Positions 1,938 to 25,853 of a stretch of DNA of 28,660 nucleotides are shown here, one piece after another (the first letter of the stretch is position 1; each line of letters opens with the position of its first letter). Where the stretch lies: positions 1 through 28,660 of IMG/VR virus record IMGVR_UViG_3300033571_008844; one strand, given 5' to 3'. Source of the DNA: a virus. Below the pieces are notes generated by a model. That model searched no databases. It was not told where the DNA came from and worked only from the letters and a program-made list of their open reading frames with translations. Position numbers and translations under genes: made by a program.

Positions 1938-2207
1938 TTATTCTACAGTTTTCAATTTTTCAATCGCCTCAATATACGTTTGTTTTGCCTGTAATCCAAC
2001 GAGTCTGTTTACTTCATTCTCTCCGTTCATAAATACGACCGTGGGTACGGTTCGGATGTTATACTTTTCAGTCAGCGTTGTATCTGTTTCAGCATCAATC
2101 ATTAAAAACTGTAGCTCCGCGTGTTCTTTCTTGAACGTATTAAATAACGGCGCGATTGCTCTGCACGGCATGCACCAGCTTGCCGAAAACTTAATTACGG
2201 TTTTCAT
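1938..2207 (-). CDS. Thioredoxin (WCMPC)
   Basis: A compact 89-residue thioredoxin. The sequence shows KFSASWCMPCRAIAPLF with the redox pair Cys12/Cys15 preceded by Trp11, and the cis-proline loop TVPTVVFMNG (Pro55). It is shorter than the cellular protein (about 105 residues), as phage thioredoxins often are. The ATG at 2207 overlaps the TGA of the ribonucleotide reductase gene as ATGA, so the two are translationally coupled. This is strong context for it being the physiological electron donor that re-reduces the reductase's C-terminal cysteine pair. Its stop is TAA at 1938-1940, after which the same frame stays open into the endonuclease. Confidence 0.9.
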   Translation of the reverse strand: MKTVIKFSASWCMPCRAIAPLFNTFKKEHAELQFLMIDAETDTTLTEKYNIRTVPTVVFMNGENEVNRLVGLQAKQTYIEAIEKLKTVE

Positions 2208-4054
2208 GTTACTTCACACCCCCCAGCAGCACACGCCGCTTCACCAGCCAAGTCGGTCGTGTCGTCTAGTTCAACCACTTGAGTTAGATCAATGTCATGT
2301 AAGTGCTTCACTAATTCATTGTACTTTTCTTCAGTAATGTCTTCGAAAGGTGCTTGGATATAATTGCCCCCATCGTGAGGTAGCACTGAAAGTGCGGTGA
2401 AGTTTTCTCTGTTTGACCACATCCATTCCCCAACACCTTCCCATTCATCTGGCTTAATGGACACAGTAACAGACACATTATTCTTGTTTTCTCCTTTTCG
2501 GTGCCCCGGCTTTACCCACTCATTCCAAACAATCTTCACGCGATTAAGTAAATCTAATGCGGATTCTTGTCTAGTAATCGCCCCCGCAGGAGCCCGTTGT
2601 GGGATAGAAATAACAGCCTGTTGGTGTGGCTTGAAGAATTCGTCCTCAACTAGCTCAGGATGATGAATTGCTAGGTGGGTATACAAACTTTCATTCTTTC
2701 CGATTCTAACTCTGCGAATATAGAAATCATTGTGCCACGCATGAATACCCGAAGACGTTCCTAGCACCAACGAAGTTGTTCCACTTGGCTTTACCGTGGT
2801 AGTACGTGCGGCCTTATTGATACCAATCAAGTCGGCAACGCGCTCGTTTTCAGCCTTAACAACATTCGCCGCTTCTTTCTGGTTAAGCTTCAATACAGCA
2901 GTAGACGCAATACCAGTCTTTCCAATACCGATCAACGCTTCTTTTTCCGTAGTACGCTTCCATACATCACGGAGATAGTGAAAGTCAGTATAACTTGCTT
3001 GTAGCGTTCCAATAAATGCCGCCGCCTTTGCGCGAGCATTGAAGTCGTCTTGATCAACCAAGTCTGATACGTTGATTTCACACAAATTACAAAACTGGAA
3101 CGGTCGCAGAGAAATTTCCGCACATGGATTTAGTCCCCAATTTGGATCATTGGTGAACATGAACCCCGGCTCTCCAGAGTTCGATAACTCAATCTTCTTC
3201 CACAGATTGAGAAATACATTCTTTTCAATCTTGTGACGAACGATTACCGCGCTATTATTTGCTCGACCACGTTGTGGATTCTCCTCCCACCAATTACCAA
3301 ACTTGCAAGTTAACATGTCATCGTCATCTAAATCAAAAAGCGCAATCATTGCCGACCGGCGAATGCCACCCGAAAGAACTGCGTCCGCGATATAACAAAA
3401 GATGTCATGTACTTCGATGGGCAAAAGTTGCTCACCGTTGCTCTTACGATCAAGAATCTTTTGAATATTGTGCAAGCAATCCTTCAACGGTTCAGGACCG
3501 GGTGCCTTTCCACCCGCAGTAACGAGCATTGCACCTTTAGGGCGAATGTCTCTGAAATCAAATACGGGTAAAGCCTTGCCTTTCATGTACGCGGATATCA
3601 ACACCTTCACCGCATCTGACCATCCTTCAATGCTATCCCCAACAAGATAGCGACGAGTTTTAGTTGGCTTGTGAATCTCCGGTAGCTTCTCTACGTGATG
3701 TCTCTGCACGGAGTAGCCAACCCCAACCCCGGACAATAGAAGGAACATGCCTTCACTAAAGGCGTCCGGATGATCTACTGGTAGGAAGCAGCAGTTATAT
3801 ATACGAGCGTTGTTTAATTCAATTGGCTTACCAGCAAACTGCATGGAGCGCATCGAAGGAAGAATTTTCTTAGCCCGAACAAACATATAGGCTTCTCTAA
3901 TTTGTTCGGTTAGGTGGGGAAATTTTGCGATATGCATATTTTCATTTCTGTCTACCAATTCGTCCCACGTTTCCCGGCGAAATTTTTCGGGAAGGAATTT
4001 GCTGTACTTAAGAAATGTGGTTATATCAGACAGAATTTTTGCTTCTAATAACAT
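2204..4054 (-). CDS. nrdJ: Adenosylcobalamin-dependent (class II) ribonucleotide reductase, monomeric type
   Basis: Reduces ribonucleotides to deoxyribonucleotides with a thiyl radical made from adenosylcobalamin, so it needs no small subunit; none is encoded nearby. The 616-residue chain has NCCF (Cys88/89) early, the finger-loop NPCAEISL (309-316) with the radical Cys311 and Glu313, a following cysteine pair (Cys322, Cys325), the ARTTTVKPSGTTS phosphate-binding segment (416-428), and a C-terminal swinging tail CAAGGC (Cys608, Cys613) that shuttles electrons from thioredoxin. The layout resembles the Lactobacillus RTPR branch but is shorter than that ~740-residue enzyme, and I see no N-terminal ATP cone. 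The ATG at 4054 follows an excellent site (ttggagattcagg). Coupled by ATGA to the thioredoxin downstream. The host must make or import B12 for it to work. Confidence 0.92.
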   Translation of the reverse strand: MLLEAKILSDITTFLKYSKFLPEKFRRETWDELVDRNENMHIAKFPHLTEQIREAYMFVRAKKILPSMRSMQFAGKPIELNNARIYNCCFLPVDHPDAFSEGMFLLLSGVGVGYSVQRHHVEKLPEIHKPTKTRRYLVGDSIEGWSDAVKVLISAYMKGKALPVFDFRDIRPKGAMLVTAGGKAPGPEPLKDCLHNIQKILDRKSNGEQLLPIEVHDIFCYIADAVLSGGIRRSAMIALFDLDDDDMLTCKFGNWWEENPQRGRANNSAVIVRHKIEKNVFLNLWKKIELSNSGEPGFMFTNDPNWGLNPCAEISLRPFQFCNLCEINVSDLVDQDDFNARAKAAAFIGTLQASYTDFHYLRDVWKRTTEKEALIGIGKTGIASTAVLKLNQKEAANVVKAENERVADLIGINKAARTTTVKPSGTTSLVLGTSSGIHAWHNDFYIRRVRIGKNESLYTHLAIHHPELVEDEFFKPHQQAVISIPQRAPAGAITRQESALDLLNRVKIVWNEWVKPGHRKGENKNNVSVTVSIKPDEWEGVGEWMWSNRENFTALSVLPHDGGNYIQAPFEDITEEKYNELVKHLHDIDLTQVVELDDTTDLAGEAACAAGGCEVT

Positions 4055-17574: not shown

Positions 17575-20500
17575 TTAAAACGTTGCCTTTGCTTGGGTGC
17601 GGAATACACCTACCGAGGTAGAATCTGCGCTGTTTACCAATACCTTTCCTACTTTACTACCATCCATATATATTCCCATTCCTGCAATTGCAGTCACAAT
17701 TTTATCTAACTTGGATTCTAATGCACTTAAATCCACAGACGGTGGAGGTGAAGTTGACGTAGCCTTGGATGCGATTTCTCCCTTCGAAAGCATCTTTAGG
17801 CCCGTTTCTCGCGAAACCATATCATCGGCAAATGCTACGATATTATCCTTATCATTCAATGCAACCGTTGCGGTAGGCGTGACAAGTGCTCGCTTTCCAT
17901 AACCAGACTTAGAAATAACATCGTCTCCTGTCATAGCACCCAACACAGTTCCACCCAACCCAACCGCACCACCAAGCAATGCACCGGCAACCGCGCCGGG
18001 TAATCCTAAAAAGCTACCGTACATCGCTCCTGCACCGGCACCCGCACCGGCAGCGCCTAACGCCGCTAATAAACTCCACGCAAGGTTTCCTTCTTTTGCT
18101 GCATTATATGACCCAACTGTTGCAGTAGCAGCCGTTGTAGCCAATGCAGCTATAGGAAGCATTCTGCCGACACCGGCTCCAATTCCTCCCAATGGCCCAG
18201 CCATCAATCTACCAAACGCTCCCCCTATACCACCAACTGCTTTTCCTGATGCAATAAGCGCAGTGTTAAATTCAATACCGGCCAACAACAGCGAAATGGC
18301 TCCTGATAGGACACCAACCATTACACTCGTTACATTAAATATCTTTTCTAATGTATTTACTATACTAGATAGCGTACTGTTTGCCGCTTCTTGCAAGTTT
18401 TCCATCGTTTTTTCGCCAGAACCGGTCGTTTTTCCGGCAAGTCGTTGAATGTCTGCTATAGATAATCCAAACGCTTCGGATAATGCTAGTTGCTCTGACC
18501 GTCTTAGTCTGGTTATGTCTTTACCAGTAGCCGCTAATTGCGAACGAAGCTCGTTAAAAAGAGCCCCGGTATCGCCCATTTCGGCAAGTTCTGCCAATCG
18601 GTTTGTGTCTAAACCAAATCCCATAGCTCCTAATTCAGCGGAGCTTTCTAAGAATGATTCAAAGTTACCGATAATGTTGTCGCCAATTTGATCTACCTTA
18701 GATAAATCGACGCCTATCTTTTTAGCATCTATTGCGGCTCGCGCAAACGAAGTTTGAAAGCGAGTTCCGTTTCTTGCGAGCAAATCTGAATACGCGGCAA
18801 TAGCTTGCATTGCATCTTTTGCCGTTAAGTTTTTAGCTTCAAATTCTGCGATAAACTTATTTTCCGCGTCAATCGCGGCTTCTCTGTCTCCACCCGTCTG
18901 AGTTAAAAATACTCGTCTAGCAAGAGCTTGTTGAGCAGGAGTTATACCAAGACGAACACTTCTCTGTGCAATAGATGCAGCCGCCTCTCCAGTTAAGACT
19001 CCACCGAACTCTTCTTGAAAAACGCTAGCCGCTTCAAGTATTTGTTCTCGTGTTATAAACGGATTATTCGAACCGGAAAACAAACTTTTAAAGGATTCGA
19101 CAAAACTAGATGTTATTGATCTAACCGCAACGCCCGCATTTACACCAAACATTTGTTGGACTTTTCGTATTTCATTTGCTACGTCTAATAAGTTTTTTGA
19201 AATAGACGCAAATATCCCAACGATATAGTTTGCGAATTTACTAACCTTACCAATCGCTTCTCTATCGTCACGTTCTTGTTTTTCTTTTGCTCGCTTTCTT
19301 TGTTCAAATAAACTATCTTCAAAATACGCCTGCTCCAACATATGTTTCTTTCTTTGATCAAATAAGCTATTTTCAAAATACGCTTGTTCCAACATATGTT
19401 TCTTTCTTTGATCAAATAAGCTATTTTCAAAATACGCTTGCTCAAGCATATGCTTAGTCTGCTGGTCATGCAAATTATTTTCAAAATATGCTTGTTTGAG
19501 CATATGCGCTTGACGTTGGTTAAATAAATCATCTTGAAATTTCGCGTCTTCTAAGATTGCTTTTTGCCACCACGCATCATAATCTTCTTGTAGTTTTATA
19601 CGTCTATCAAGCGCATCGTTCATCATCTTTGCTTCATCACGCATGTGAGCAACGCGTTGATTGTGCAAATCATTCATGAAATTCGCTTCTACCTCAAGTT
19701 GCTTAGCTTGATTTTCTAAGTGCTTTCTGCGCTGTTCGTGAATATTATTCTCAAATATCGCTTCTGTTTCTATTTTCTTTTGTCGATCATCTAATGATTT
19801 TTGCCACCACTTATCATAATCTGCTTCTAACTTTTGTCGTCTAACACGAGTTGCTTCCATCTCTTTTGCTTCTAGCTCCAGATGTAGACGGCGCTGATTA
19901 ATTATTTCATTCAAAAACTTTGCATGAGTTTCCAGCGCAATTTGTATTTCTTTATACAGCTTTTCTGTGAATCTAGCTTCTTTTTCCGCCGCTTTTTTAT
20001 CATGAACTCTACCGGCGTTAATGTCCTTTGGTCCGGAGCGTTCTTCCGGAGGAGGCGGGGGAGAGGCAGCGGGGGCAGGAGTTGGTGGCTTTTTTCTTCC
20101 GCCACCACCACCAGACGATGTGGCAGTTGGTGCTGGACTTGGGGTCGTTGTTTTTTTACGTGTGCTCTTTGCCGATTCAGCAACCAAACTTGGCTCTATG
20201 GCAGGAGCCACTACGTCAGGCGTTGTAGGAGTGGACACCTGTTCTACTAAGCTTGGAGAAATGCTAGGTTCAGTAGCAGAAACGGTCGTTGGTGCTGGGG
20301 TAGGGGTAACCGCAGCAACGATAGATGGCGCAACATCTACTACTTTCGGTGCTTTGGGAGTTGTAGTTTTTTTAGATTTTTTAGCCGGTTTTTCTGGAGT
20401 GGCTGCCTTTTTCGCTATTTGTTCAAACAGAGTGGTATGCTTTTTTTCTAGCTCGTCTAGTTTTGCTTCCAACCCAGAAATTTCATCCTGTAGTCCTTTA

Positions 20501-20865
20501 TACTCCGTACCATCTACGATTTTTTGCAAGGCATCTTGGTTTCTTGTTATACTCGCGGCGTCGGATTTACCGGTGTCTAACATAGCCTTTCTTTCTTTGT
20601 TTATTTCGGAAATTCTAGATGATATTCTTGTTTTTTCTGTCTTCGACGCAGACTCAAACGCTTCTTTTAGTTTATTATATTCCGCAAGTAAAGTAGCGTC
20701 TTTGTTCTTTATTTCAGTAATTCGAGCAACAGCCGCCCGTACAGCACCCTTTAAGGTAACTACGGTCGTGCTCATTGACCTCCACTTTTCTCGCTTTCCT
20801 TCTAACTCTTCTCGCAGTGTTCTAATCTGAGAATATGTTTCTTCTAGTTGTTTTTCTATTTCCAT
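17575..20865 (-). CDS. Tail tape-measure protein
   Basis: A 1096-residue protein that sets tail length and is ejected ahead of the DNA. Regions: coiled coil 1-155; low-complexity Lys/Pro/Ala/Thr linker 155-280 with a Gly5 and a Pro6 run; long helical region 290-535 with repeats built on F-x-N-x-L-x-x-Q-R-x-x-H-M and two YD(K/A)WWQK segments (349, 429); a helical core 540-840; a hydrophobic stretch (848-863, VMVGVLSGAISLLLAG); a Gly/Ala-rich membrane-compatible region 870-980; and a C-terminal domain ending IYMDGSKVGKVLVNSA (1065-1080), a tail common in phage tape-measure proteins. The order upstream of it (gp26-like gene, frameshifted extension, small structural gene) is the standard place for a tape measure. 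Start at 20865 has ttgggataatat upstream. Confidence 0.82.
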   Translation of the reverse strand: MEIEKQLEETYSQIRTLREELEGKREKWRSMSTTVVTLKGAVRAAVARITEIKNKDATLLAEYNKLKEAFESASKTEKTRISSRISEINKERKAMLDTGKSDAASITRNQDALQKIVDGTEYKGLQDEISGLEAKLDELEKKHTTLFEQIAKKAATPEKPAKKSKKTTTPKAPKVVDVAPSIVAAVTPTPAPTTVSATEPSISPSLVEQVSTPTTPDVVAPAIEPSLVAESAKSTRKKTTTPSPAPTATSSGGGGGRKKPPTPAPAASPPPPPEERSGPKDINAGRVHDKKAAEKEARFTEKLYKEIQIALETHAKFLNEIINQRRLHLELEAKEMEATRVRRQKLEADYDKWWQKSLDDRQKKIETEAIFENNIHEQRRKHLENQAKQLEVEANFMNDLHNQRVAHMRDEAKMMNDALDRRIKLQEDYDAWWQKAILEDAKFQDDLFNQRQAHMLKQAYFENNLHDQQTKHMLEQAYFENSLFDQRKKHMLEQAYFENSLFDQRKKHMLEQAYFEDSLFEQRKRAKEKQERDDREAIGKVSKFANYIVGIFASISKNLLDVANEIRKVQQMFGVNAGVAVRSITSSFVESFKSLFSGSNNPFITREQILEAASVFQEEFGGVLTGEAAASIAQRSVRLGITPAQQALARRVFLTQTGGDREAAIDAENKFIAEFEAKNLTAKDAMQAIAAYSDLLARNGTRFQTSFARAAIDAKKIGVDLSKVDQIGDNIIGNFESFLESSAELGAMGFGLDTNRLAELAEMGDTGALFNELRSQLAATGKDITRLRRSEQLALSEAFGLSIADIQRLAGKTTGSGEKTMENLQEAANSTLSSIVNTLEKIFNVTSVMVGVLSGAISLLLAGIEFNTALIASGKAVGGIGGAFGRLMAGPLGGIGAGVGRMLPIAALATTAATATVGSYNAAKEGNLAWSLLAALGAAGAGAGAGAMYGSFLGLPGAVAGALLGGAVGLGGTVLGAMTGDDVISKSGYGKRALVTPTATVALNDKDNIVAFADDMVSRETGLKMLSKGEIASKATSTSPPPSVDLSALESKLDKIVTAIAGMGIYMDGSKVGKVLVNSADSTSVGVFRTQAKATF
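19270..19539 (-). repeat. Five tandem 54-bp (18-residue) repeats in the tape-measure gene
   Basis: Units of 18 residues at 443, 461, 479, 497 and 515, consensus FENSLFDQRKKHMLEQAY. The hexamer catatg recurs exactly every 54 bases (19339, 19393, 19447, 19501). The units at 19345-19398 and 19399-19452 differ only near one end, so the latest duplication is recent. Eighteen residues equal five helical turns, so added units extend one continuous helix. Confidence 0.9.
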
Positions 20866-20868
20866 ATA

Positions 20869-21240
20869 TTATCCCAACAACGCATGATACGTTGCGGCAA
20901 ATAAGGTTAGTATGTTTCCGCTAGGAACAGTAACCACAGGACTACCGGCTATATTAATTCCTTTATAAGATCGTGTTCTTTGAATCCTTGCTATAGGAAC
21001 TCCTGCAACATCAGACCCTAAGAAAATCAAATCCCCAACTAACGTAGCCAACGGATATCCAGATACCGCTATACCATTAAATAATTTATTGTTTTTAATA
21101 GTATATAAAGGACTGCCGGATATCGACAATCCTTTATACACTCGAAAATTATTTGTTACTGTGATAAGAGGGGAACCGCGCACGGCTATCCCGGTATATG
21201 CTCTGTCATGTTGAATTAACAGATCGTAAAGACGTATCAA
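20869..21240 (-). CDS. Small structural protein of five ~19-residue repeats, TTG start
   Basis: A 123-residue protein made almost wholly of five repeats beginning at Tyr15, Tyr35, Phe54, Phe73 and Tyr92, each following (Y/F)xGxx(V/I)xGxP(L/I)xx(I/V), for example YKGLSISGSPLYTI. The pattern suggests a repeated beta-hairpin or small beta-barrel/solenoid; I know no named family. It has no internal Met, and TTG at 21240 is the only start that fits, with GGAG six bases upstream. The gene lies between the gp26-like pair and the tape measure, and its stop is three bases from the tape-measure ATG, so it is probably a tail or baseplate component made at a controlled lower level by the weak start codon. 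Function otherwise unknown. Confidence 0.72.
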   Translation of the reverse strand: MIRLYDLLIQHDRAYTGIAVRGSPLITVTNNFRVYKGLSISGSPLYTIKNNKLFNGIAVSGYPLATLVGDLIFLGSDVAGVPIARIQRTRSYKGINIAGSPVVTVPSGNILTLFAATYHALLG

Positions 21241-21242
21241 AA

Positions 21243-21434
21243 TTATCTCCGCTTAGACGCTTTTTCTATTTCATCCGATTCTTTTCGTTTAAGTTCATTA
21301 AATTCTTTTATATAAAAATTTCTTAAATAAACTGGCATTTGGTACAATTCCATAACACTAAAGGCGCCCTTCGAGTAATGTGCTGCCGTGAGCATCGCTT
21401 TGTGCGTCTGTACCTTATATTCAGGCGTCAGGCC
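21243..21434 (-). CDS. Candidate +1 frameshift extension of the gp26-like protein (tail assembly chaperone C-terminal part)
   Basis: An open frame of 63 residues, +1 relative to the gp26-like gene, overlapping its end. Written from the slip site it begins GLTPEYKVQTHKAMLTAAHY, then carries ELYQMPVYLRNFYIKEF and a charged helical end (ELKRKESDEIEKASKRR). The MPV-LR-FY-KEF pattern resembles the small proteins found after gp26-like genes in related phages. It has no credible start of its own: the frame is closed by TAG just upstream of the slip site, and its first ATG (at 21391) would remove 13 residues and has no Shine-Dalgarno. Made through the frameshift, the fusion would be about 309 residues. 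If the 7-T run is a base-calling error, this is simply the C-terminus of one protein. Confidence 0.62.
   Translation of the reverse strand, partial: GLTPEYKVQTHKAMLTAAHYSKGAFSVMELYQMPVYLRNFYIKEFNELKRKESDEIEKASKRR
21247..21250 (-). promoter_or_regulatory. Ribosome binding site that fixes a TTG start
   Basis: GGAG on the minus strand followed by ataatt and the TTG at 21240. It overlaps the terminal codons of the upstream reading frame (stop TAA 21245-21243), so translation of the five-repeat protein is probably coupled to the end of the frameshifted product. Confidence 0.65.
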
Positions 21435-22173
21435 AAAAAAAGTTTTGCCCTATCGGCAACCTCACGGAAACAGGGTCGTCACCACATGTGCATGCAACTT
21501 TTATGGTCAAGTCAATGTCAGGCAATAGCTTTTTATACTGCTCCTTTATGAACCGAGAATCTCTAACTAACATATTTTCCACAAAGTTCCACACCGTTGA
21601 TCTGGAAGCGTCTCCGTTCACTGATACGATGATAGCCCGCAGTCTAGCGGTTGACTCGTTTGATACATCTAACGATGCCTTTTTAAGAGATTTTATTTCT
21701 TTGTCAACATCATGTTCGTCTTTTCTAGTCAATAGCTTAAGTTTAACTTCTGCCTTTGAGACCGGCAAAACAACCGTAAACTCTTTTTTCGTAGCTTCCG
21801 TTGGTTCGTTTTTTGTATTTAATTGCGTTAAATCTGCAACCTCTTCTATTTCACTTCCACAATTAGGACAAACAACAGTAACAGGATAGTCCTTTCCATA
21901 TGCTAAAATTCTTGTGGCGACCATCGCTGCATTTATATCCCCAACCAAAAGATCAGACGATTTTACTCCGGGTGTTAGTATAAGGCTGTCTAGCAACTTA
22001 TCTAACACAATATTTTTTTCAATTAAGTTTCTTGAACTTAAGATATCTTCTTCCTTTGCCGTCATATATTTCAACTCAATCTGGCCAGAACGAAGAGGAC
22101 TGTTTTCTGGATAGAATAACCCCTTTGAAGGCAAATCAATAACTTCGCTTGGATATAACTTTGTGTCACTCAT
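21421..22173 (-). CDS. T4 gp26-like baseplate/tail assembly protein
   Basis: A 250-residue protein of the T4 gp26/gp51-type family. Residues ~10-95 show the family pattern: IDLPSKGLFYPENSPLRSG, ELKYMTAKEEDILSSRNLI, DKLLDSLIL, and LLVGDINAAMVATRILAYG. A CPNCG pair (about 105-109) and a CTCG pair near residue 230 suggest a structural zinc ribbon. The C-terminus ends FFWPDA. Members assist assembly of the baseplate hub and tail tube; by position before the tape measure it corresponds to the tail assembly chaperone of other phages. It has the best ribosome site in the window (AGGAGG at 22185-22180). Its end overlaps a second frame that may be reached by +1 frameshifting. Family call is good; whether it is virion component or chaperone is not settled. 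Confidence 0.8.
   Translation of the reverse strand: MSDTKLYPSEVIDLPSKGLFYPENSPLRSGQIELKYMTAKEEDILSSRNLIEKNIVLDKLLDSLILTPGVKSSDLLVGDINAAMVATRILAYGKDYPVTVVCPNCGSEIEEVADLTQLNTKNEPTEATKKEFTVVLPVSKAEVKLKLLTRKDEHDVDKEIKSLKKASLDVSNESTARLRAIIVSVNGDASRSTVWNFVENMLVRDSRFIKEQYKKLLPDIDLTIKVACTCGDDPVSVRLPIGQNFFWPDA
21435..21441 (-). other. Seven-T slippery site
   Basis: On the minus strand the zero frame reads CAA AAC TTT TTT TGG. A tRNA-Phe on the second TTT can slip forward one base and re-pair perfectly with TTT, entering the GGC CTG ACG frame. The zero frame stops five codons later (TGA 21423-21421), as expected for a lambda G/G-T style arrangement. A -2 slip would reach the same frame. Confidence 0.55.
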
Positions 22174-24368: not shown

Positions 24369-25853
24369 TTAAGCATTGCAATCAACGCATTGTGAATTAT
24401 TGGTGCAAGAAGTAAAGCATCCTCCAATTACGGGGCTGGTTCCGGATCCAATGTAAACAGGAGTTGCGGTACTACACACGAATTGTGAATTTCCTGACGG
24501 TGATAGGTCAGCCGTTCCTCCTCCTACCGGATAATATCTAACAACCCCCGTATCAAACGGTCCTACCGCATAGCATTCTCCCATTGGAGGAGAGTTTGTA
24601 GGGGTTATTGTAGGAGTTGGAGTGTTGGTCGGAGTAACTGTATTCGATGGAGTAACTGTATTAGAAGGCGTAACAGATGGTGTAGCAGTGTTGGATGGAG
24701 TGGCTGTATTAGAAGGCGTAACCGTATTAGATGGAGTAACTGTATTAGAAGGCGTAACAGAAGGTGTAACCGTATTCGATGGAGTAGGCGTAGGAGTTTG
24801 TGATGGACATGCCGTAGTTCCGGTTACATTTCCATTAACCACGGTATATAAAGTTCCACTTATTAAAATAACTCCCGTGAATAAAGAAACACACCCGGTT
24901 CCTAAAAAGATTCTACCACTACAATCTTCAGAAAAATTCTGTACGCTTGGTGACGAACAATATTCCGATAACGTGAATCCCCAATTAAACTGTCCTACAT
25001 TTGTACACGCACATATTGGAGAAGGAGTTACTGTTGGCGTTGGGGTGTTGGATGGCGTAACAGACGGAGTAACTGTATTAGATGGCGTGACTGTATTAGA
25101 TGGTGTTGGGGTGTTGGACGGTGTGACGGTATTTGATGGTGTAATAGACGGAGTAACAGTGTTAGATGGCGTAACAGTGTTAGAGGGAGTAATTGTGTTA
25201 GTTGGGGTATTAGACGGAGTTATTGTATTAGATGGAGTCGTCGATATCGACGGAGTTGCTGTTGGTGACGGGCTTGGAGATAACCCCGGGGTAACCGTGG
25301 CAGAGGGAGTTGCCGTTTTAGACGGAGTTACGGTATTAGACGGAGTTGGCGTGTTGGATGGGGTTGCTGTATTAGAAGGAGTCGCGGTAACAGATGGAGT
25401 AATAGTGGGAGTTACGGACGGTGTGGTTGTAGGTGTTACGGTATTTGATGGAGTTATAGATGGAGTGGCTGTCGGTGTAACGGATGGAGTTACAGTGTTA
25501 CTAGGAGTTATTGTTGGAGTTGCTGTATTACTAGGGGTTATACTTGGGGTTACGGTATTACTAGGTGTAACGCTTATGCTAGGCGTAGTAGTAGGAGAAG
25601 GAGATGGGATTGGAAAGCATAAAAAATAATCTCTCGCAGTAGGAGTTACCGGCGGATAAATTCCATTCGTTATCGTTGCGTCAGAGTATCCGGCTGGACA
25701 CCCGGGTAGCGGGGTTCCTCGTGGACCCTTGCTACCGGAAATTCCAATTATAGCCTGTGTTACTCGCGCAACAGATTGCATAGCATGTGCATAGCTTGCA
25801 GTGGCCGCGTACGAGCTTGTAGATGGTATACCTACTGGAAAAAACACGCTCAT
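24369..25853 (-). CDS. Thr-Pro-Ser-Asn repeat surface/tail fibre protein
   Basis: A 494-residue protein dominated by [12 protein letters not shown] repeats (82-279 and 352-420), the sort of extended, possibly glycosylated stalk seen in phage appendage proteins. The N-terminus is a short module [20 protein letters not shown] (10-29) followed by a collagen-like [12 protein letters not shown], shared with the two small proteins encoded just upstream. Two cysteine-rich globular parts lie after the stalks: 281-349 ([13 protein letters not shown]...) and 424-494 (ending [14 protein letters not shown]), likely disulfide-stabilised tips. No signal peptide. The start at 25853 has a strong site (ataggagtattat then ATG). 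Virion appendage is likely; receptor binding is inference. Confidence 0.75.
24594..24800 (-). repeat. TPSN-type repeat tract, C-terminal
   Basis: Encodes residues 352-420 of the fibre protein: imperfect units of 4-6 codons, mostly [18 protein letters not shown]. Third codon positions vary between units, so the protein pattern is being kept despite nucleotide drift. Confidence 0.85.
25017..25610 (-). repeat. TPSN-type repeat tract, N-terminal
   Basis: Encodes residues 82-279 of the fibre protein, about 200 residues of Thr/Pro/Ser with Asn, Val, Ile or Ala at the variable positions. Longer and less regular than the second tract. Confidence 0.85.

What the first reader, a model, noticed from the sequence alone, without database searches (positions are those of the whole stretch)
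21243..22173. Candidate +1 (or -2) programmed frameshift joining the gp26-like gene to a downstream tail-chaperone frame
Seen: seven T's at the end of the gp26-like gene, a zero-frame stop five codons on, and a +1 frame that is open for 63 codons, lacks its own start, and encodes a conserved-looking helical sequence. Known: lambda G/G-T and many other phages make a frameshifted tail assembly chaperone just before the tape measure. Here the signal and gene order match, but the slip type (T-run, +1) and a T4 gp26-type partner are unusual as far as I know.
Basis: partly seen in the sequence, partly recalled or inferred. Interest (0 to 1): 0.75.

Follow-up and report, generated by a model that had tools for sequence, protein, structure and literature searches.

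The report
+1 frameshifted T4-like tail chaperone gene
A phage gene for a tail-building helper protein very probably makes a second, longer protein when some ribosomes skip one base near its end; hundreds of related phages keep the same trick, some slipping the other way, while phage T4 uses two separate genes instead.

Summary
On the minus strand the gp26-like gene (22173-21421; Pfam T4_baseplate, E 1e-15) ends AAC TTT TTT TGG CCT GAC GCC TGA. The +1 frame is then open for 63 codons without a plausible start of its own.

It is not an error or chance. I compared 252 relatives. All 245 with at least 100 nt beyond the gp26 stop have an alternate frame opening before that stop; inside gp26 bodies such open windows occur 1 in 2,289. 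The +1 product is conserved and under purifying selection. The +1 site is UUU_Y in almost every cluster, sometimes with only three or four T's, so it is ribosomal slippage rather than a homopolymer or polymerase effect. Cyanophages and jumbo phages carry a homologous extension in the -1 frame behind U_UUU_UUC; the cyanophages add a Shine-Dalgarno-like element and a stem-loop.

Function: a tail assembly chaperone made in short and long forms, encoded before the tape measure gene. T4 makes the same two forms from genes 26 and 51. That identification is published (Vladimirov, Gautam & Davidson 2022), as is frameshifting in T4-like phages. What seems new is the +1 direction in this large clade, and repeated flips of direction with mirror-image codon signatures. 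No experiment yet shows the long product.

The parts
21421..22173 (-). zero-frame gp26-like gene, the short tail assembly chaperone (TAC-N), 250 aa
   Evidence: PF12322 T4_baseplate E 1.1e-15, phrog_150 baseplate hub E 3.5e-16; 46 close relatives in IMG/VR
21433..21441 (-). +1 slip site TTT TTT TGG: P-site UUU re-pairs one base 3' on UUU, next codon read is GGC
   Evidence: UUU_Y in almost all of 117 non-redundant +1 clusters; UUU_Ynn stated to be especially +1-prone in PMC5009743
21421..21423 (-). zero-frame stop TGA that ends the short product
21243..21434 (-). +1-frame extension (TAC-C / gp51-like domain), 63 codons plus TAA; predicted three-helix hairpin
   Evidence: alignment A7 with invariant F, L, Y, P, R; AlphaFold2 pLDDT 91.6; homologous to cyanophage gp51
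20869..21240 (-). small gene starting 3 nt after the extension's stop (TTG start, upstream GGAG); repeat-built, weakly like 6-fold beta flower; in the four closest relatives only; neighbour, not part of the frameshift
   Evidence: (PF21786 E 4.5e-5, below cut-off)
17575..20865 (-). long coiled-coil ORF, probable tape measure protein, the presumed client of the chaperone
   Evidence: no Pfam or NCBIfam match; same position as the annotated tape measure gene in phages immuto, SP-15 and LIS04

Best explanation
This is a tail assembly chaperone gene of a T4-like contractile phage with a programmed +1 ribosomal frameshift. Most ribosomes stop at the TGA and make the short gp26-like chaperone. A fraction slip +1 with peptidyl-tRNA-Phe moving from UUU to the overlapping UUU at UUU_UGG, and make a 309-residue protein ending in a helical gp51-like domain. 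By analogy with lambda gpG and gpGT, the shared N-terminal part would bind the tape measure protein and the C-terminal domain would recruit the tail tube subunit. Shown here by comparison: the conserved gene, frame, slip site and extension, the gene order and the homologies. Inferred: that ribosomes slip here, the +1 rather than -2 step, the ratio of products, and the binding roles.
For: All 245 testable relatives keep an alternate frame open across the gp26 stop against 1 of 2,289 open windows as background. The +1 extension is recognisably homologous across the clade, and substitutions by +1 codon position 1/2/3 are 1804/1081/3103. In 117 +1 clusters the second Phe codon is TTT in 112, the next base is T or C in 116, and the base before FF is C or G in 103 and T in only 5, although T is about 39% of third positions. 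Sites with 3-4 T's (TTC TTT TGG, TTC TTT CGT, CTT TGG) keep the +1 frame. Gene order sheath - tube - gp26 - extension - tape measure in immuto, SP-15 and LIS04. The -1 lineages carry a homologous extension (hhalign E 2.8e-6), and T4 gp51 is a gp26-like domain plus this extension. Genomes with the frameshift layout have at most one detected PF12322 gene; T4, Konradin and CfP1 have two.
Against: No proteomic, ribosome-profiling or reporter data. No stimulator was identified for the +1 group: downstream folding is weak (mean z -0.4 to -0.7) and upstream SD-like matches (35 of 117) look largely codon-driven. T7 in the window alone cannot separate +1 from -2. One relative inside the clade (L118) uses the -1 frame at T TTC TTC TGG, which is unexplained. 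A few +1 relatives lack the FF site (L160, L163-165, L169, L170).
Confidence: 0.88

Rival explanations
1. Access to the +1 frame is by -2 slippage on the T-run, as in the tail chaperone genes of phage Mu, adding one extra Phe.
For: Seven T's permit -2 re-pairing in the window itself; -2 is used in decoding phage Mu (PMC5009743).
Against: Relatives with TTC TTT TGG, TTC TTT CGT or CTT TGG keep the +1 frame although -2 re-pairing there is mismatched. The base after UUU is a pyrimidine almost always, which matters for +1 and not for -2.
Confidence: 0.06
2. RNA polymerase slippage on the T-run makes a share of messages with six T's.
For: A homopolymer is present in the window and in most of the clade.
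Against: Seven is short for bacterial slippage (own knowledge), and related sites have only three or four T's in a row with the same open frame.
Confidence: 0.02
3. A sequencing or assembly error split one continuous gene.
For: The T7 site is a typical place for an indel, and the window is a metagenomic contig.
Against: The same offset is present in about 120 non-redundant +1 clusters and in isolate genomes (immuto, Mel-JY01, SP-15, LIS04, GXN1, RM378); a second contig, L002, is identical over 6,750 bases, though it may not be an independent sample.
Confidence: 0.01
4. The extension is translated as a separate protein by re-initiation or coupling at the gp26 stop.
For: In most -1 cyanophages an ATG lies 3 codons after the slip and is annotated as the start of gp51; in VP-1 and D531 an ATG overlaps the stop.
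Against: In the +1 clade only 1 of 117 clusters has a start within 12 codons preceded by an SD-like sequence, and the conserved GLTPEYK-type residues lie upstream of nearly all ATGs. In T4 the extension exists only fused to a gp26 domain.
Confidence: 0.03

Closest known systems
T4 gp26 / gp51, identified as TAC-N / TAC-NC by Vladimirov, Gautam & Davidson 2022 (Virology 566:9-15)
   Same: Same Pfam family (PF12322). The long form is gp26-like domain plus extension. The short/long two-gene solution in some T4-like phages is restated in PMC10885494, and poly-T -1 signals in T4-like TAC genes in PMC12846349.
   Different: T4 has two paralogous genes and no slip site (gp26 ends GAG TTC TTT GAG TTA); the window has one gene and a +1 site. 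The 2022 paper was not held, so whether it lists +1 cases is unknown.
Cyanophage P-SSM2-type gp26-gp51 (Kyanoviridae) and Schizotequatrovirus phi-Grn1
   Same: gp26 homologue ending in FF with a homologous C-terminal domain in another frame across the stop.
   Different: -1 frame, U_UUU_UUC; in the cyanophages also an upstream GAGGGA-like element and a downstream stem-loop.
Phage lambda gpG / gpGT and P2 gpE / gpE'
   Same: Chaperone gene between tail tube and tape measure genes, short and frameshifted long product.
   Different: -1 shifts; no sequence similarity was found to them in the family scans; weak, not significant fold similarity to HK97 tail chaperone 2OB9.
Haloarchaeal myovirus HSTV-2 tail chaperone
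   Same: Very likely +1 frameshift in the tail chaperone position (PMC5009743).
   Different: Different virus lineage; its site was not examined here.
E. coli prfB and argI-type +1 sites
   Same: P-site CUU_U / UUU_Y slip; immuto has CTT TGG exactly where others have TTT TGG.
   Different: No stop codon in the A site and no well-placed SD here.

Membership tests
Long-tailed-phage tail assembly chaperone with frameshift (lambda G/GT kind) | Gene lies between tail tube and tape measure genes | tested here: met
   immuto, SP-15, LIS04: sheath, tube, gp26, extension, tape measure. In the window a helicase-like gene lies upstream, but a long coiled-coil ORF follows.
Long-tailed-phage tail assembly chaperone with frameshift (lambda G/GT kind) | Second conserved domain in another frame, opening before the stop, at a slip-prone site | tested here: met
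Long-tailed-phage tail assembly chaperone with frameshift (lambda G/GT kind) | Both proteins made in a fixed ratio, absent from the virion, binding tape measure and tube proteins | not testable with these tools
   needs proteomics and binding assays; for T4, gp51 is required but not in the particle (PMC3004832)
Long-tailed-phage tail assembly chaperone with frameshift (lambda G/GT kind) | Fold similarity to solved tail chaperones | tested here: inconclusive
   HK97 chaperone 2OB9 is the top PDB hit but E 1.2, prob 0.18
T4 gp26/gp51 family (PF12322) | Score above Pfam cut-off | tested here: met
   58.4 bits against 24.5
T4 gp26/gp51 family (PF12322) | Long form carries the gp51 C-terminal extension | tested here: met
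   +1 tails vs -1 tails E 2.8e-6; -1 tails vs T4 gp51 tail E 2.6e-7; +1 tails vs T4 directly not significant
Canonical -1 frameshift site (X XXY YYZ, with stimulator) | T before TTT TTY, downstream stem-loop | tested here: not met
   Window has C before TTT TTT and the extension is in the +1 frame; the +1 group has no marked downstream structure
prfB-type +1 site | Slip codon followed by a stop, with an SD 3 nt upstream | tested here: not met
   A-site codon is mostly UGG or CGN; no SD enrichment at that spacing

The most novel reading that the evidence does not exclude
Within one orthologous chaperone gene, evolution has repeatedly flipped the direction of programmed frameshifting: UUU_Y +1 in a large clade spanning phages of Bacteroidota, Microcystis, Bacillus, Listeria, Streptococcus and Rhodothermus, and U_UUU_UUC -1 in cyanophages, schizo-T4 and jumbo phages. 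Synonymous choices at the same two Phe codons are mirror images, and the T4 lineage replaced the shift by one gene duplication. UUU_Y without a stop or obvious stimulator would be a widespread natural +1 class.
Probability: 0.6. Interest if true: 0.65.

Novelty: new variant of a known kind. Interest (0 to 1): 0.5.

Why it matters
The annotated +1 members looked at here are filed as 'baseplate hub' plus, at most, a short 'hypothetical protein', so the long chaperone is missing from their records. The family offers natural +1, -1, two-gene and possibly coupled versions of the same two products. That makes it testable which site features set the direction and level of frameshifting, and whether the short-to-long ratio matters for tail assembly.

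Tried and rejected
Homopolymer error, RNA polymerase slippage, -2 slippage and independent initiation were tested against relatives and set aside. SD stimulator for +1: SD-like 4-mers are enriched (35/117 against 6%) but sit mostly in conserved coding positions about 8 nt from the slip codon, so not claimed. Downstream structure for +1: none of note. PDB profile search with the extension: nothing. Fold search of gp26 against PDB: HK97 chaperone on top but not significant. I first took the T4 gp26/gp51 link as new; citing papers showed it is published, and the paper itself was not held. No paper found on +1 in this clade (and earlier searches), but coverage is limited to open-access text.

Full report
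What is there. The window is a 28,660-base IMG/VR virus record. On the minus strand, 22173-21421 encodes a 250-residue protein of the T4 gp26 family (PF12322, 58.4 bits, cut-off 24.5; phrog_150 baseplate hub). It ends AAC TTT TTT TGG CCT GAC GCC TGA. The +1 frame is open for 63 codons to a TAA at 21245-21243. Sequence library scans give this extension no significant hit on its own. A small repeat-built gene and then a 1,096-residue coiled-coil ORF, the probable tape measure protein, follow on the same strand.

More than chance. I collected 252 gp26-family loci with a readable stop from viral contigs, genome MAG contigs and named phages. All 245 with at least 100 nt beyond the stop have a +1 or -1 frame that is already open upstream of the gp26 stop and runs at least 100 nt beyond it; the other seven are cut by contig ends. 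Inside gp26 bodies a 55-codon open +1 window occurs 1 time in 2,289, and a -1 window 0 in 1,290. After clustering at 90% nucleotide identity there are 121 '+1' and 71 '-1' clusters. For a minority without a profile match the frame was assigned by openness alone. The +1 extension aligns as one family with invariant F, L, Y, P and R, and substitutions fall at +1 codon positions 1, 2 and 3 in the ratio 1804:1081:3103.

The slip site. In 117 +1 clusters with an FF-like motif, the second codon is TTT in 112 (CTT in 2), and the next base is T in 92, C in 24 and A in 1. The base before the motif is C or G in 103 and T in 5, although T makes up about 39% of third positions in these genes. In the 71 -1 clusters the base before is T in all, the second Phe codon is TTC in 69 (29% of Phe codons elsewhere) and the next base is G in 64. 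So the same two Phe codons carry mirror-image synonymous choices that fit UUU_Y +1 slippage and U_UUU_UUC -1 slippage respectively. UUU_Ynn is stated to be especially prone to +1 frameshifting, and CUU_U is the most efficient +1 site in one survey (PMC5009743). Phage immuto has CTT TGG at the site, and several relatives have TTC TTT with only three or four T's. These exclude polymerase slippage as a general account and disfavour -2.

The -1 branch is a useful control. In the cyanophage-type loci a GAGGGA-like element sits 10-16 nt upstream (SD-like in 65 of 71 -1 clusters, background 7.6%), and the 50 nt from 5 nt after the slip codons fold strongly (mean z -3.2, mononucleotide shuffles). One base pair of the stem is U-A, G-C or A-U in 27, 17 and 8 sequences, i.e. 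25 compensatory cells, and the structure keeps 90.6% of cells paired. That is the usual -1 cassette. The +1 group lacks it.

What it is. In phages immuto, SP-15 and LIS04 the order is sheath, tube, gp26, extension, tape measure, the place of the lambda G/GT and P2 E/E' tail assembly chaperones. The +1 and -1 extensions are homologous (hhalign E 2.8e-6), and the -1 extension matches the C-terminal end of T4 gp51 (E 2.6e-7). T4 gp26 and gp51 are both PF12322; gp51 is gp26-like plus the extension. T4, Konradin and CfP1 hold two PF12322 genes; of ten records with the single-gene layout, eight show one and two fell below the Pfam threshold although tblastn finds their single gene. A tree puts the two-gene copies in one clade (100/95), the window in the +1 clade, and -1 rows on both sides, needing at least three changes of direction. 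Some placements rest on long branches.

What is known. Gp26 and gp51 as the T4 short and long chaperones, and the two-gene solution, are published: Vladimirov, Gautam & Davidson 2022, seen here through citing papers. From memory, its abstract also says frameshifting is conserved in several T4-like groups. Atkins et al. 2016 note that tailed phages use -1, -2 or +1 for this purpose, with HSTV-2 very likely +1. Konradin's record already names gp26, gp51 and gp28 'tape measure protein assembly chaperone'. I found no description of +1 in this clade, and the records of immuto, SP-15, LIS04 and Mel-JY01 do not annotate a frameshift.

Limits. No experiment shows the long product. The window's own reads were not available; L002 is identical over 6,750 bases but may come from the same or a related sample. 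The AlphaFold models of gp26 (pLDDT 89.5) and the extension (91.6, three-helix hairpin) are confident. The top PDB hit of the gp26 model is the HK97 tail chaperone, at a non-significant E of 1.2. Unexplained: L118, which sits in the +1 clade but uses the -1 frame, and six relatives that lack the FF site.

Noticed in passing
window 20869-21240 (-): A 123-residue repeat-built protein (repeats like GIAVRGSPLITV), weakly like 6-fold beta flower, starts 3 nt after the extension's stop. Only the four closest relatives have it, and its role between chaperone and tape measure is unknown.
   Followed up: partly
window about 19290-19510 (-): The probable tape measure ORF contains tandem 54-nt repeats (YFENSLFDQRKKHMLEQA), seen as self-matches at 85% identity.
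   Followed up: no
window 24369-25853 (-): A 494-residue protein dominated by [15 protein letters not shown]-like repeats, next to other short Thr/Ser-rich structural-looking genes.
   Followed up: no
window 2204-4054 (-): Adenosylcobalamin-dependent ribonucleoside-triphosphate reductase-like gene (TIGR02505 E 2.7e-72, below cut-off) beside two thioredoxin-like genes.
   Followed up: no
L118:3220-3265: A +1-clade relative whose extension is in the -1 frame behind T TTC TTC TGG: either a real switch of direction or an indel.
   Followed up: partly
L160, L163-L165, L169, L170 near the gp26 stop: Relatives of the SP-15 group without the FF motif (TTA TTT AAT CCC AGT); the alternate frame is +1, possibly slipping at CCC_A.
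   Followed up: no
L266, L264 (Vibrio phages VP-1, D531): The extension lies in the -1 frame but without a clean heptamer; an ATG overlaps the gp26 stop, suggesting coupled re-initiation as another solution.
   Followed up: partly
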